DNA of 64,000 nucleotides from Solirubrobacterales bacterium. Lineage in GTDB: Bacteria; Actinomycetota; Thermoleophilia; Solirubrobacterales; 70-9. The first letter of the stretch is position 1. Every line of letters starts with the position of its first letter. Below, in pieces: positions 8,599-16,432 of the stretch. The stretch is from NCBI GenBank assembly GCA_020438355.1, contig JAGQUT010000003.1, positions 1 through 64,000 of the forward strand, written 5' to 3'. Below the pieces are notes generated by a model, which worked only from the letters and a program-made list of their open reading frames with translations, made no database searches and had not been told where the DNA came from. The translations under genes were made by a program, and so were the position numbers.

Positions 8599-8608
8599 CG
8601 GATACTGC

Positions 8609-8736
8609 CTTTCAGGAAATCAGGAGGCCCGGACCGGTCGGATCCGGGAGGACCGAACGCGGCACAGACCGCGCTGCCGCGTGGACTCAGCGTCCCGCAG
8701 CCCCCGTAATTCGGGCGATCCTGATTTCGTTGAAAG
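8609..8736 (-). promoter_or_regulatory. translational attenuator of cimA
   Basis: The leader ORF stretch CTTTCAACGAAATCAGGA (8736-8719, minus strand) is complementary to TCCTGATTTCCTGAAAG (8625-8609), which includes the cimA Shine-Dalgarno GAAAGG. The helix would be 10 bp plus 6 bp with a small internal loop. Between the arms, ACGCGGCA and TGCCGCGT form an 8-bp hairpin after the leader stop. A ribosome stalled at the Ile codons would cover the leader arm and free the start site. The pairing is seen in the sequence; the regulation is inferred. Confidence 0.6.
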
Positions 8737-8746
8737 CGTGAAGCAT
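8687..8746 (-). CDS. cimA leader peptide (isoleucine codons)
   Basis: A 19-codon ORF, MLHAFNEIRIARITGAAGR, starts five bases after the ilvE stop and ends 88 bases before cimA. Three of its 19 codons are for isoleucine, the end product of the CimA route, within seven codons (residues 8, 10 and 13). It has no good Shine-Dalgarno of its own and may be read by ribosomes re-initiating after ilvE. The nucleotides coding for residues 4 to 9 are those that pair with the cimA ribosome site, which argues that the ORF is regulatory rather than random. Confidence 0.55.
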   Translation of the reverse strand: MLHAFNEIRIARITGAAGR

Positions 8747-8751
8747 GGGTC

Positions 8752-9696
8752 TCAGACTGTACTGGGTTCGTTCCTGGCCGCTGGTTCGCCGACCAGATCA
8801 AGCCACTCCGTGTATTCCGGCGACCGGCCGTAGATGGCATCCTCGTAGCCCTGCTGGACCAGACGGCAGACCTCGCCCGGATCACCAAGGGGGTGGTCGT
8901 CAACTTCCCGGACCGGGACCACTTCGGCGGCCGTGCCACACATGAACACCTCGTCAGCGAGGTACAGCTCGGACCGGGCGATGTCACGCTCGATCACCGG
9001 GTAGCCCTTGTCTTCGAGGATCTGAATGACCGACTTGCGGGTGATCCCGTCGAGGATCGATGCGACCTGCGGCGGCGTGTAGACCTTGCCCTCCTTGACC
9101 ATGAAAATGTTCTCACCCGAGCCTTCGCAGACCATGCCGCGCTCGTCGAGAAGAATCGCCTCTTCGTAACCGGCCTTGGCCGATTCCGTCTTGGCCAGGA
9201 TCGAGTTCAGGTACTGGCCCGAAGCCTTGGCGTGAGGAATCAGGCTGGCCGAAGAGACCCGTCGCCAGGAAGAGACCTTCGCACGGATTCCGTGATTCTT
9301 GCCGTCCTCGCCGAGATATGCGCCCCAGGGCCAGACCGCGATGATGATCTCGACCGGAGCCGACTTCGCGTAAAGGCCCATCTCGCCGTACCCGCGAAAA
9401 GCCAGCGGTCGGATGTAACAGTCACGCAGCCCGTTCTTCCGGATCAGCTCCCGGGTTGCCTCGCCAATCTCCTCCTTCGAGAAGGGCAGATCGAGGAAGT
9501 ACATCCGGGCGGAATCCTCGAAGCGCTGGAGATGCTCGGCATGCCTGAAAATCGCCGGACCCTTTTCACCGTCGTAGCAGCGGATTCCCTCGAACACGCC
9601 GGTGCCGTAGTGAAGACCATGGCTCAGTACGTGCACCTGCGCCTCGTCCCACGGGACGAACTTGCCGCTGTGCCAGATGTACTCAGCCTTTTCCAA
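8752..9696 (-). CDS. ilvE: branched-chain amino acid aminotransferase
   Basis: Final transamination making leucine, isoleucine and valine from their 2-oxo acids. It is a class IV (fold type IV) PLP enzyme of 314 residues. HVLSHGLHYGTGVFEGIRCY is the N-terminal family block, and the PLP lysine is probably in HAKASGQYLNS near residue 156. EGSGENIFMVKEGKVYTPP and LDGITRKSVI are further class IV motifs. Translation starts at TTG 9696, eight bases after AAGGAG. It lies between leuB (67 bases upstream) and the cimA leader, consistent with one transcript for leucine and isoleucine synthesis. Confidence 0.95.
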   Translation of the reverse strand: MEKAEYIWHSGKFVPWDEAQVHVLSHGLHYGTGVFEGIRCYDGEKGPAIFRHAEHLQRFEDSARMYFLDLPFSKEEIGEATRELIRKNGLRDCYIRPLAFRGYGEMGLYAKSAPVEIIIAVWPWGAYLGEDGKNHGIRAKVSSWRRVSSASLIPHAKASGQYLNSILAKTESAKAGYEEAILLDERGMVCEGSGENIFMVKEGKVYTPPQVASILDGITRKSVIQILEDKGYPVIERDIARSELYLADEVFMCGTAAEVVPVREVDDHPLGDPGEVCRLVQQGYEDAIYGRSPEYTEWLDLVGEPAARNEPSTV

Positions 9697-9763: not shown

Positions 9764-10852
9764 TTATCCCTGAGCCAGCTCGGCCAGAACTGCCTCGGTC
9801 ACCTCGACGGTGCCGACCCTGGTTTCGCCGGCGCCGCCCTCGTAGATGTCAGGCGTCCTCAGGCCCTTCTCCAGGACCGCGTCCACCGCCGCCTCGACCC
9901 GGTCGGCTGCGTCACCGTCACCGAGCCCGTAGCGGAGCATCATCGCGCCCGAAAGCATGGTGGCGAGCGGATTTGCGACGCCCTGGCCAGCGATGTCCGG
10001 AGCGGAGCCGTGAACGGGCTCAAAGAGACCGGGTTCACCCTCGGCCCCCATCGAGGCCGAGGGAAGCATCCCCAGGGAGCCGGTCAGCATGGCGGCCTCA
10101 TCGCTGAGGATGTCGCCAAAAAGGTTCTCGGTGACGATCACGTCGATCTCCGCCGGCGCCGAAACCAGCTTCATGGCGGCGAAGTCGACGAGCAGGTGGT
10201 CAAGCTGGACATCCGGGTATTCCTCGGCGACCTGCTTGACGGTTTCCCGCCACAGCCTCGAGCTCTCGAGCACGTTCGCCTTGTCTACCGACAGGACCCT
10301 GGGGCTGTCCGAACGCTGCCTTGCGGCGTCGAATGCTGCTCTCGAAATCCGCTGGATCTCGGCGATCGAGTAGGCACATTCGTCGTAGGCGACATTGCCA
10401 TCATCCCGACGGCCGGAATCGCCGAAGTAGATGCCACCGGTCAGCTCACGGACGACAAGCAGGTCGGTTCCGTCGATCAGTTCTCGCTTGAGAGGGCTCG
10501 CGTCGATCAGGGCCGGAGAAGGCTTGACTGGCCGCAGGTTTGCGTAGAGGCCGAGTGCCTTGCGGATGCCGAGAAGGCCCTGTTCGGGCCTTGGTGCGGT
10601 CGGATCCTTGGCAACCGCTTCATCCCACCTGGGGCCACCCACGGCGCCAAGAAGCACGGCATCCGAGGCCCTGCAGGCCTCGACGACCTCGTCGGTGAGT
10701 GCGACACCATGCTCGTCGATCGAGGCACCGCCGATCAGGTGCTCCTCGTATTCGAAGTTCCCGACCGCATCGAGGACCTGCCGGGTTGCGTCGACAATCT
10801 CGGGACCGATTCCGTCACCGGCCAGCACGACGATCCGTCTTGTCTCACTCAT
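9764..10852 (-). CDS. leuB: 3-isopropylmalate dehydrogenase
   Basis: NAD-dependent oxidative decarboxylation of 3-isopropylmalate, and probably of the methylmalate intermediate made through CimA. The 362 residues match the family. Motifs: [10 protein letters not shown] at the N-terminus, [18 protein letters not shown] and [12 protein letters not shown] (substrate loop), [12 protein letters not shown], and the metal- and NAD-binding block [16 protein letters not shown]. The ATG at 10852 lies inside the end of the methyltransferase gene (eight-base overlap), so the two are probably translationally coupled. Confidence 0.96.
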
Positions 10853-11630
10853 TCTCGTTCTTCCTTTTCGCGGTCATGTTCAGGCGAACATAGTTGAAGC
10901 TGGTCGGTTGACCCATCTCGGCCAGCAGTCGGTCTGTGTACTCGGTAAAGAGGCCGGGTTCGAGCATCTCTCGAGCCGGAGCCAGGAAAGAAGCCTCGAA
11001 GAACCCTCTCGGGTCCTCCGGGTGGGCGATTCTCTCCTCCAGCCAGCAGTCGATTTCACCGTAACCGGCTTCGAACAGCCGGATCTCGGTTTCTTCGGGT
11101 CCGGCGAAATTCCATGGCTCCTCGAAATCTCCGAAGACTCCGGCAAAAGGCTCCTGGGCGCCTACGATCCGGAGGGCTTCGACGACTTCAGACACGTTTC
11201 CCTTCCCGCCGCATTGCGCGACCAGCGAGCCTCCGGGCCTGGTTGCTGCGGCTGTGGCAGAGAACAGTGCGGAGTGGTCGCGGATCCAGTGGAAGGTCGC
11301 ATTCGAGAACACGGCATCCACCGGCTCGCCAACCTCCAGCGAGGTCAGGTCCTGGCAGAGAAAGCTGACCCGGGGATCATCCCCGAGCCGCGCTTCCGCC
11401 TCGCTGATCATGCTGGGAGAGCCGTCGACGCCGATTACCCTGCCTTCCGGCAGCCTCCCGAGAAGGTCCTCTGTCACCTTTCCGGACCCGCAGCCCGCAT
11501 CAAGCACGGTCTCGTTTCCCGCCAGTTTCAGCCGATCGATCACGGCACCGGACCACTCTCGCTGTGGTGTGGCCACACGCGAGTACTTGGTGGCCTCCCA
11601 GTCGGCGGGCCGGGTTTCAGGAGACGACAT
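10845..11630 (-). CDS. trans-aconitate 2-methyltransferase-like SAM methyltransferase
   Basis: Class I SAM-dependent methyltransferase of 261 residues, starting at ATG 11630, ten bases after leu[21 protein letters not shown] (about 37-56) is the SAM-binding motif [21 protein letters not shown] the motif II region, and [15 protein letters not shown] the post-II motif typical of the Tam family. Tam proteins esterify trans-aconitate, an inhibitor of aconitases. The yeast relative Tmt1 also methylates 3-isopropylmalate. Here the gene lies exactly between leuD, which makes 3-isopropylmalate, and leuB, which consumes it, and overlaps leuB. Family assignment is good; the substrate is inferred. Confidence 0.8.
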
Positions 11631-11640
11631 CGCTCTGCTC

Positions 11641-12204
11641 CTACAGGGCTGTGGTGACCGGACCGTAGGTCCCGCCGGGACCGGCTTCGAAAGCCTCGAT
11701 CTCATCCTCGGACTGCAGGGTGAGAGCGATGTCATCCAGCCCGCCGAGAAGCCTCCGCTTGATCTCGCGGTCGATATCGAAGGATGCCTCTCCCCCGTCC
11801 CAGCTCACGGTCTGCGATTCCAGGTCGATCTTCGCCGCTCCAGCCGTCGCGATGGCCCTGCACTCCTCCTCCGGCAGCACGATCGGCAGGAAGCCGTTCT
11901 TGGTGCTGTTCGAATAGAAGATGTCCGAGAACGAGGGTGCGATCACGGCCTGGAAGCCGAACTGATGGAGAGCCCACACGGCATGCTCGCGTGAGGAACC
12001 GGAACCGAAGTTCCTGCCCGAAACGAGGATCGGATGCGGCTCGAGTTCGATCTCGCCATCCCGCATCCAGTCGTAGAAGAGGAACTCTCCGTAGCCGGTG
12101 CGTTCGACCCTCTTCAGGAACTGCTTCGGGATGATCTGGTCAGTGTCGACGTCGCTGCGGTCCAGGAAGGCGACTTCGCCTTCGATTGTGCTGATCGGTT
12201 CCAT
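11641..12204 (-). CDS. leuD: 3-isopropylmalate dehydratase, small subunit
   Basis: Small (swivel) subunit of isopropylmalate isomerase, partner of LeuC. The ATG at 12204, two bases after the leuC stop, gives 187 residues. An upstream start would only add translated leuC sequence. DVDTDQIIPKQFLKRVERTGYGEFLFYD and GRNFGSGSSREHAVWAL are family signatures; the GSGSSRE loop binds substrate. It also serves the citramalate route to isoleucine in organisms with CimA. Confidence 0.95.
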   Translation of the reverse strand: MEPISTIEGEVAFLDRSDVDTDQIIPKQFLKRVERTGYGEFLFYDWMRDGEIELEPHPILVSGRNFGSGSSREHAVWALHQFGFQAVIAPSFSDIFYSNSTKNGFLPIVLPEEECRAIATAGAAKIDLESQTVSWDGGEASFDIDREIKRRLLGGLDDIALTLQSEDEIEAFEAGPGGTYGPVTTAL

Positions 12205-13604: not shown

Positions 13605-14231
13605 CTATCCGCGGCGGAGTCCCGCCGCGATCACAGCGATGAACTCCACCGGTTCATCGCTTTGGTTCTCGAAATGGTGTGGCAGGTCAGCGTCAAAGGT
13701 GACGCTGTCTCCTGCGTTCAGCTGATGGCGTTCTCCCTCGAAGACGAGCGTCACGCTTCCGTCGAGCACAACGGTTGTCTCGCGGCTGCCTGGTTCGTGC
13801 ATCGGGGCGTCACCCTCTCCGCCGGTACTCGCGCCCGGATTCAGGCGGTGAGTAGAGACATCTGCCCTCTGCCCGGGAAGCGGAGGCGTGAGCTCCTCGA
13901 TTCGGTGGCCCCCGCTGCTTCGCACGAGGTGATCCTCCGAGCGGCTGATGACCAGGTGCCTGACCTCGTCGAGGCGAAGCAGCTGCGACAGGCTCAGGTC
14001 AAGCCCGGCAGCGATCTTCTCGGCGACCGCCAAAGTAGGGCTGGTGCTGCCCCGCTCGACCTGCGAGAGCATGGTCGGGCTGACGCCGCTGCGATCGGAA
14101 AGATCCCTCAGGGAGAAGTTCATCGCTTCCCTGAGGGCCTTCACCCGCATGCCGACTGCGTTCTCGGTGCCAGTTCCGGGCGAAACCGTACCGGCATCCG
14201 GAGATTCGACTGTGGGAGTGATCTGCGACAT
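13605..14231 (-). CDS. XRE-family regulator with C-terminal cupin domain
   Basis: DNA-binding regulator that probably senses a small ligand. Counted from ATG 14231 (208 residues): an N-terminal Ser/Thr/Pro segment, a helix-turn-helix (about 28-82, with LRDLSDRSGVSPTMLSQVER) and a cupin barrel (about 130-200, with PMHEPGSRETTVVLDGSVTL and PHHFENQSDEPVEFI). This XRE-cupin architecture is common in regulators of amino acid or sugar metabolism. The start is chosen because the promoter -10 sits seven bases before it. GTG codons at 14234 and 14252 are alternatives, but the latter would precede the expected transcript start. As first gene of the leu operon it is the likely local regulator. Confidence 0.85.
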   Translation of the reverse strand: MSQITPTVESPDAGTVSPGTGTENAVGMRVKALREAMNFSLRDLSDRSGVSPTMLSQVERGSTSPTLAVAEKIAAGLDLSLSQLLRLDEVRHLVISRSEDHLVRSSGGHRIEELTPPLPGQRADVSTHRLNPGASTGGEGDAPMHEPGSRETTVVLDGSVTLVFEGERHQLNAGDSVTFDADLPHHFENQSDEPVEFIAVIAAGLRRG

Positions 14232-14236
14232 CACTT

Positions 14237-14266
14237 GTACGTTATCACGCACAAACGTACTGTCAA
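14237..14266 (-). promoter_or_regulatory. promoter and operator of the leuCD-leuB operon
   Basis: The minus strand has a perfect TTGACA (14266-14261), a 16-base spacer and TAACGT (14244-14239), then seven bases to ATG 14231, so the message should be leaderless. Lying across the spacer and -10 is a perfect inverted repeat, GTACGTT-N10-AACGTAC (14237-14243 and 14254-14260). A protein bound there would block RNA polymerase. The adjacent XRE-cupin protein is the obvious candidate. Confidence 0.7.
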
Positions 14267-16267: not shown

Positions 16268-16270
16268 TTG

Positions 16271-16363
16271 CTTCTCCTTCTAAGGTCGGTACTTGAATCT
16301 GGTTCAGCTCGCGGCTGTCGCGCCGCCCGGCGATATATCCCCCGAAAGGGGGAGAAGGAGAAG
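16271..16363 (-). promoter_or_regulatory. translational attenuator of leuA
   Basis: The leucine codons of the leader contain CTTCTCCTTCT (16363-16353, minus strand), a perfect 11-base complement of AGAAGGAGAAG (16281-16271), the leuA Shine-Dalgarno. Between them are a CCCCC-TTTC-GGGGG hairpin and a GCGGC/GCCGC stem. With leucine plentiful the ribosome clears the codons and they can pair with the Shine-Dalgarno. With leucine scarce the stalled ribosome would cover them and leave leuA open. The pairing is seen in the sequence; the mechanism is inferred. Confidence 0.7.
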
Positions 16364-16393
16364 TAGGCTCGGGCTGTGGAACCAGTGGTTCAT
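16304..16393 (-). CDS. leuA leader peptide (leucine codon run)
   Basis: A 29-codon ORF upstream of leuA encodes SPSLLLLLPLSG in its first half: six leucines within seven codons. The codons are CTA, CTT, CTC, CTT, CTC and, after one proline, CTT. They include CTA and CTT, which should be uncommon in so GC-rich a genome and so sensitive to tRNA-Leu supply. The ATG lies about five bases after the predicted transcript start. Leucine leader peptides before leuA are known in other Actinobacteria. The unusual point here is that the codon run itself mirrors the leuA ribosome site. Confidence 0.85.
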   Translation of the reverse strand: MNHWFHSPSLLLLLPLSGDISPGGATAAS

Positions 16394-16404
16394 ACCTGCG
16401 TTCA

Positions 16405-16432
16405 AGAGTAGCGCACCGGGGCTTCGGTTCAA
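16405..16432 (-). promoter_or_regulatory. leuA leader promoter
   Basis: On the minus strand, TTGAAC (16432-16427) and TACTCT (16410-16405) are 16 bases apart. Both match the sigma-70 consensus moderately. Transcription would start near 16398, only about five bases before the leader ATG. The -35 overlaps the stop region of the upstream oxidoreductase gene. Confidence 0.6.

What the first reader, a model, noticed from the sequence alone, without database searches (positions are those of the whole stretch)
8609..8746. Isoleucine leader before cimA that pairs with the cimA ribosome site
Between ilvE and cimA is a 19-codon ORF with three Ile codons within six positions. Its bases at 8719-8736 can form 10 + 6 bp with 8609-8625, covering the cimA GAAAGG site. 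Isoleucine is the end product of the CimA route, so the codon choice makes sense. Inside the loop, mutually exclusive stems exist: GGAC/GTCC with GCTGC/GCAGC against ACGCGGCA/TGCCGCGT. Because the gene is inside an operon, this would tune cimA alone while leuCD, leuB and ilvE stay on.
Basis: partly seen in the sequence, partly recalled or inferred. Interest (0 to 1): 0.85.

Follow-up and report, generated by a model that had tools for sequence, protein, structure and literature searches.

The report
Isoleucine-sensing leader before citramalate synthase gene
Between two amino-acid genes of an uncultured actinobacterium lies a tiny coding sequence that is kept across its whole order, always with one rare arginine-isoleucine codon pair, and whose RNA folds back over the start site of the gene for the first isoleucine-specific enzyme, so it most likely lets a slowed ribosome turn that gene on when isoleucine runs short.

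Summary
On the minus strand, 5 nt after ilvE, a 19-codon ORF (MLHAFNEIRIARITGAAGR) precedes cimA, and its coding bases pair with the cimA Shine-Dalgarno (SD) region. Comparison shows a real element, but not quite the one described. Of 109 order-level loci with a readable ilvE-cimA junction, all 87 with a leader-sized gap (or ilvE fused to the leader) carry a short ORF with the rare codons CGA-ATT (Arg-Ile), 1-9 codons before the stop. The 22 with almost no gap lack it, as do 20 loci outside the order. The ORF frame is conserved (71/71 against 0/71 in other frames); in two lineages the leader is fused in frame to ilvE. The SD-pairing arms co-evolve (native against swapped arms, z = -10.7), and the inner hairpins covary. 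The three-Ile cluster is not conserved: only the last Ile codon is. One proposed alternative stem is not supported. The order lacks IlvA-type threonine deaminase, so CimA is probably the only isoleucine route. Best reading: leader-peptide translational attenuation of cimA, a ribosome slowed at CGA-AUU keeping the SD open. It resembles the actinobacterial LEU element, and an apparent LEU element precedes leuA in the same cluster. The regulation itself is inferred, not shown.

The parts
8687..8746 (-). Leader ORF, 19 codons, MLHAFNEIRIARITGAAGR-stop
   Evidence: Sequence; homologous short ORFs in 87 order-level loci; frame test 71/71 against 0/71
8708..8713 (-). Conserved dicodon CGA-ATT (Arg-Ile), proposed ribosome slow/stall site
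   Evidence: Present in 87 of 87 loci with a leader-sized ilvE-cimA gap or fusion; CGA 5-9% of Arg and ATT 3-9% of Ile codons elsewhere
8719..8736 (-). 5' arm of long-range stem P1 (inside the leader coding sequence)
   Evidence: Pairs with 8609-8625 in the MFE fold; co-varies with the 3' arm across relatives
8609..8625 (-). 3' arm of P1, overlaps the cimA ribosome site
8608..8613 (-). cimA Shine-Dalgarno GAAAGG
   Evidence: Sequence, 9 nt before the cimA ATG; AAAGG conserved in the genus
8703..8715 (-). Small hairpin CCCG-AAUUA-CGGG containing the conserved dicodon (seen within the genus only)
8673..8701 (-). Hairpin H1 with the leader stop codon in its loop
   Evidence: 97.6% of cells paired in its main 7-bp helix, 3 pairs with changes on both sides in 12 genus members
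8655..8674 (-). Hairpin H2 (GCGCGG.../...CCGCG); boundaries approximate
   Evidence: 94.8% of cells paired, 2 pairs with compensatory changes
8628..8648 (-). Hairpin H3 (CCCGGA.../...TCCGGG), variable sequence, conserved pairing in the genus
   Evidence: 6 of 7 pairs with changes on both sides
8752..9696 (-). ilvE, upstream gene; its stop lies 5 nt before the leader ATG
   Evidence: NCBIfam NF005146/TIGR01122
7018..8598 (-). cimA, citramalate synthase, the regulated gene
   Evidence: TIGR00977 equivalog, 641 bits

Best explanation
A leader-peptide (uORF) attenuator that acts on translation of cimA. Ribosomes finishing ilvE start the short leader, often at an overlapping or adjacent stop/start. 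When Ile-tRNA is plentiful they run through CGA-AUU, terminate at the stop codon (here in the loop of hairpin H1) and leave; the leader RNA folds and its 5' arm pairs with the cimA SD region, holding cimA translation low. When isoleucine is short, the ribosome waits with CGA in the P site and AUU in the A site; it then sits on the 5' arm, P1 cannot form and the SD stays free. The rare CGA codon, read in this genome only by the tRNA-Arg with anticodon ACG, probably makes the single Ile codon a sensitive brake. Shown computationally: the translated frame, the conserved dicodon, the covarying P1, H1 and H2, and the absence of the usual alternative Ile entry enzyme. Inferred: the stall, its dependence on isoleucine, and the sign of regulation.
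For: All 87 order loci with a leader-sized gap or fusion carry the leader with CGA-ATT, and none of the 22 without a gap do. The frame is open upstream (start, or fusion to ilvE) and closed within 9 codons in 71/71 loci, against 0/71 in the other two frames. In-frame fusions to ilvE occur in two lineages, L024/L029-L033/L049/L050 and L064/L217. Native arms pair better than swapped arms: -30.4 against -25.6 kcal/mol, z = -10.7 over 87 loci, and 0 of 20,000 permutations within the genus. H1, H2, H3 and P2 covary. Background use of CGA and ATT is low; tRNA-Arg anticodons found are ACG, CCG, CCT and TCT, with no TCG. The IlvA C-terminal domain PF00585 is absent from 99 of 101 order genomes, so CimA is probably the only Ile entry. 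No intrinsic terminator on the minus strand. A structure model finds one strong copy per genome, at cimA.
Against: No expression data. Only one Ile codon is conserved, unlike classical attenuators with codon runs. Masking the ribosome footprint on CGA-AUU raises predicted SD accessibility only modestly (mean 0.41 to 0.47 over 87; up in 51, down in 20; Wilcoxon p = 3e-4; window locus 0.40 to 0.55). The nearest analogue, the LEU element, is reported not to behave as a simple attenuator in mutational tests in Streptomyces (PMC1262725).
Confidence: 0.66

Rival explanations
1. Arrest-peptide or dicodon arrest: the nascent peptide ending in Arg-Ile, or the CGA-AUU pair itself, stalls the ribosome in response to a free small molecule (isoleucine or a pathway intermediate) rather than to uncharged tRNA-Ile.
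For: The dicodon is constant at the codon level while flanking residues vary, and it sits near the C-terminus in every leader. A CGA codon read through inosine wobble slows yeast ribosomes, and CGA-NNN pairs are inhibitory there (PMC6301793; another kingdom, lead only).
Against: Distance to the stop (1-9 codons) and upstream residues are free, whereas known arrest peptides usually need more fixed residues (general knowledge).
Confidence: 0.15
2. Plain translational coupling: the structure only keeps cimA closed unless ribosomes leave ilvE and cross the leader, setting a fixed ratio without sensing isoleucine.
For: The leader start commonly overlaps or abuts the ilvE stop, and P1 sequesters the SD.
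Against: Does not explain the conserved rare Ile codon; species without the element simply overlap ilvE and cimA, which is the ordinary way to couple.
Confidence: 0.1
3. A riboswitch or protein-binding RNA whose conserved CGAAUU sits in the junction; the ORF is incidental.
For: Complex multi-branched fold with an SD-sequestering base stem, and a short invariant sequence near the junction.
Against: Frame conservation 71/71 against 0/71 and in-frame fusion to ilvE in two lineages; strict invariance ends at the codon boundaries; no Rfam match.
Confidence: 0.07

Closest known systems
LEU element of actinobacterial leuA (Seliverstov et al. 2005, PMC1262725)
   Same: Short leader ORF in front of a gene for a closely related synthase; codons of the sensed amino acid lie in or next to a base stem that covers the SD; no terminator.
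   Different: LEU has a run of Leu codons that itself pairs with the SD and a proposed pseudoknot. Here there is a single invariant Arg-Ile dicodon at the top of the stem, the gene is cimA inside an operon, and the leader start is tied to the ilvE end. A pseudoknot was not tested here.
ilvB-II uORF attenuator of Corynebacterium (Narunsky et al. 2023, PMC10272879)
   Same: Conserved uORF, structured RNA, branched-chain amino-acid gene downstream.
   Different: Transcription attenuation with a terminator and U-run and a BCAA-rich peptide; ours has no terminator and covers the SD.
Translational attenuators of the ermC type (general knowledge)
   Same: A stalled leader ribosome frees a downstream SD.
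   Different: The signal there is an antibiotic-bound ribosome.
Translational T-boxes of actinobacterial ileS (PMC1262725)
   Same: Isoleucine-related, SD sequestration.
   Different: A T-box senses tRNA directly without translation; no T-box match here.

Membership tests
Leader-peptide (uORF) attenuator | Short translated ORF upstream, conserved as coding sequence | tested here: met
   Frame test 71/71 against 0/71; in-frame fusions to ilvE
Leader-peptide (uORF) attenuator | Codon(s) for the end-product amino acid at a conserved place | tested here: met
   ATT (Ile) in 87/87, a single codon rather than a run
Leader-peptide (uORF) attenuator | RNA structure controlling the downstream gene that a stalled ribosome would change | tested here: met
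   P1 covers the SD and its 5' arm lies just upstream of CGA-AUU; arms covary. The accessibility change predicted by folding is modest
Leader-peptide (uORF) attenuator | Expression responds to charging of the cognate tRNA | not testable with these tools
   Needs experiment
Classical transcription attenuator | Intrinsic terminator before the gene | tested here: not met
   No terminator-like site on the minus strand
LEU element (leuA) | Run of Leu codons pairing with the SD of leuA | tested here: not met
   cimA leader has no Leu run; an apparent LEU leader is upstream of leuA in the same window
LEU element (leuA) | Conserved pseudoknot | not tested
   Pseudoknot prediction was not done
T-box riboswitch | Match to the T-box covariance model | tested here: not met
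   No T-box hit at E up to 10

The most novel reading that the evidence does not exclude
CGA-AUU is a dedicated stalling dicodon: a CGA read by inosine wobble in the P site primes the ribosome so that one following Ile codon is enough to sense isoleucine (or the Arg-Ile nascent end senses it directly), a one-codon sensor distinct from the codon runs of known attenuators.
Probability: 0.35. Interest if true: 0.8.

Novelty: new variant of a known kind. Interest (0 to 1): 0.62.

Why it matters
It adds an isoleucine counterpart to the long-unexplained LEU element, in a poorly studied bacterial order that apparently makes isoleucine only through citramalate. Its single invariant Arg-Ile codon pair gives a clean, directly testable case of how little coding sequence a ribosome-based amino-acid sensor needs, and of whether P-site codon identity can tune an A-site sensor.

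Tried and rejected
Rfam at gathering score and at E up to 10: nothing relevant. Second CGAATTAC in the window (20678 +): inside a coding gene, chance. Alternative stem ACGCGGCA/TGCCGCGT: 80% of cells paired against 95-98% for the hairpins it would replace; rejected as a conserved switch. Local hairpin around AAUUA: good within the genus, not traceable in other families by eye. Search for further copies with the structure model: one strong copy per genome, at cimA; remaining weak hits are at noise level, and the model loses sensitivity outside the genus. Apparent in-frame TGA in CimA of one genus: it is the ordinary C-terminal stop, counted because the match runs past it. Literature search for a cimA leader: no relevant hit.

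Full report
Setting. The window is part of a metagenome-assembled genome related to 'Solirubrobacterales bacterium 67-14' (nearest named record of the cimA locus, 89% protein identity). On the minus strand lie leuA, a regulator gene, leuC, leuD, a methyltransferase gene, leuB, ilvE and cimA. CimA is a clear citramalate synthase (TIGR00977, 641 bits, cut-off 450).

Observation. The best fold of the gap contains the arm pairing over the cimA SD and is more stable than shuffles (z = -2.97).

Comparison. CimA was located in 100 relatives and in larger order and class samples, and the upstream DNA was read. Of 109 order-level loci in which both the ilvE end and the cimA start could be read, 85 have a gap of leader size or ilvE fused to the leader, and all 85 carry a short ORF with CGA-ATT. 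Two more carriers (L042, L065) were first counted as gapless because the ilvE frame was mis-assigned by my script, giving 87 of 87. The other 22 have ilvE and cimA overlapping or nearly so, and none carries the motif. Carriers occur in all four families sampled (f1-f4), and 20 loci from other orders of the class have none. The simplest history is an element ancestral to the order with repeated loss. L003 is cut by a contig end.

Coding evidence. Using CGA as the frame, 71 of 71 loci are open upstream (63 with a close ATG/GTG, 8 running into ilvE) and hit a stop within nine codons after the dicodon; in each of the other frames 0 of 71 do both. In genus g11 and, separately, in genus g22 the ilvE stop is missing and the ilvE protein ends in ...IGRITPAA or ...ARIP/ARIS in the leader frame. 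This is strong evidence that the dicodon is translated.

What is constant. Across 87 leaders the six bases CGAATT are invariant and the bases on either side vary; that set was picked by the motif, so the unbiased statement is the gap test. CGA is 5-9% of Arg codons and ATT 3-9% of Ile codons in the surroundings, so the conservation is of codons, not just residues. The 44 tRNA genes found in this genome include Arg anticodons ACG, CCG, CCT and TCT but not TCG, and tRNA-Ile GAT, so CGA must be read by the ACG (presumably inosine) tRNA. The genome is 97% complete, so a missed gene cannot be fully excluded.

Structure. In 12 genus members the hairpins H1 (leader stop codon in its loop), H2, H3 and the inner stem P2 have 14 pairs with changes on both sides, above all 500 shuffles. 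For the long-range stem the arms shift between species, so I tested pairing without an alignment: each 5' arm pairs better with its own 3' arm than with those of others (mean -30.4 against -25.6 kcal/mol, z = -10.7 over 87; within the genus 0 of 20,000 permutations). L009-L012 show both arms changing together.

Mechanism. The 5' arm lies directly upstream of CGA-AUU, so a ribosome with AUU in its A site covers it and leaves the SD free; once a ribosome has finished and left, P1 can form. No terminator is present on this strand, so control is most likely on translation. Folding with the ribosome footprint masked supports this only modestly (SD unpaired 0.41 to 0.47 on average; 0.40 to 0.55 here). 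IlvA-type threonine deaminase (PF00585) is absent from 99 of 101 order genomes while the same search finds it in E. coli and others, so isoleucine supply should hang on cimA. This is an inference from one domain; a deaminase without that domain could exist.

Known relatives. leuA in the window has a leader MNHWFHSPSLLLLLPLSGDISPGGATAAS whose Leu run is complementary to the leuA SD, and ten relatives checked have similar Leu-rich leaders. This fits the LEU element of Seliverstov et al. (PMC1262725). The cimA element shares the plan but not the codon run, so it is best called an isoleucine analogue, not a LEU element. The Corynebacterium ilvB-II uORF (PMC10272879) works by transcription termination and differs. 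I found no description of a cimA leader in the searched library.

Limits. All evidence is computational. Sequences within a clade are not independent. The cimA start codon was picked by rule in divergent loci. The sign of regulation and the role of CGA are inferred.

Noticed in passing
window 16268-16428 (-): leuA is preceded by a Leu-rich leader ORF (MNHWFHSPSLLLLLPLSG...) whose Leu codons are complementary to the leuA SD, an apparent LEU element; ten relatives checked also have Leu-rich leaders.
   Followed up: partly
L024, L029-L033, L049, L050 (one genus) and L064, L217 (another): The leader is fused in frame to the C-terminus of ilvE, so the branched-chain aminotransferase ends in the leader's Arg-Ile motif.
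   Followed up: partly
L079 (ilvE-cimA gap): The element carries an extra insertion of roughly 150-200 nt between its hairpins and cimA, possibly a small repeat; effect on regulation unknown.
   Followed up: no
order-level genomes: IlvA C-terminal domain (PF00585) is missing from 99 of 101 genomes, suggesting citramalate as the only isoleucine entry in this order.
   Followed up: partly
window 10845-11735 (-): A methyltransferase gene (trans-aconitate methyltransferase-like or BioC-like, below curated cut-offs) sits inside the leu operon between leuD and leuB.
   Followed up: no
window 13605-14252 (-): A PuuR-like HTH-cupin regulator gene (below the curated cut-off) sits between leuA and leuC, directly before leuC.
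   Followed up: no
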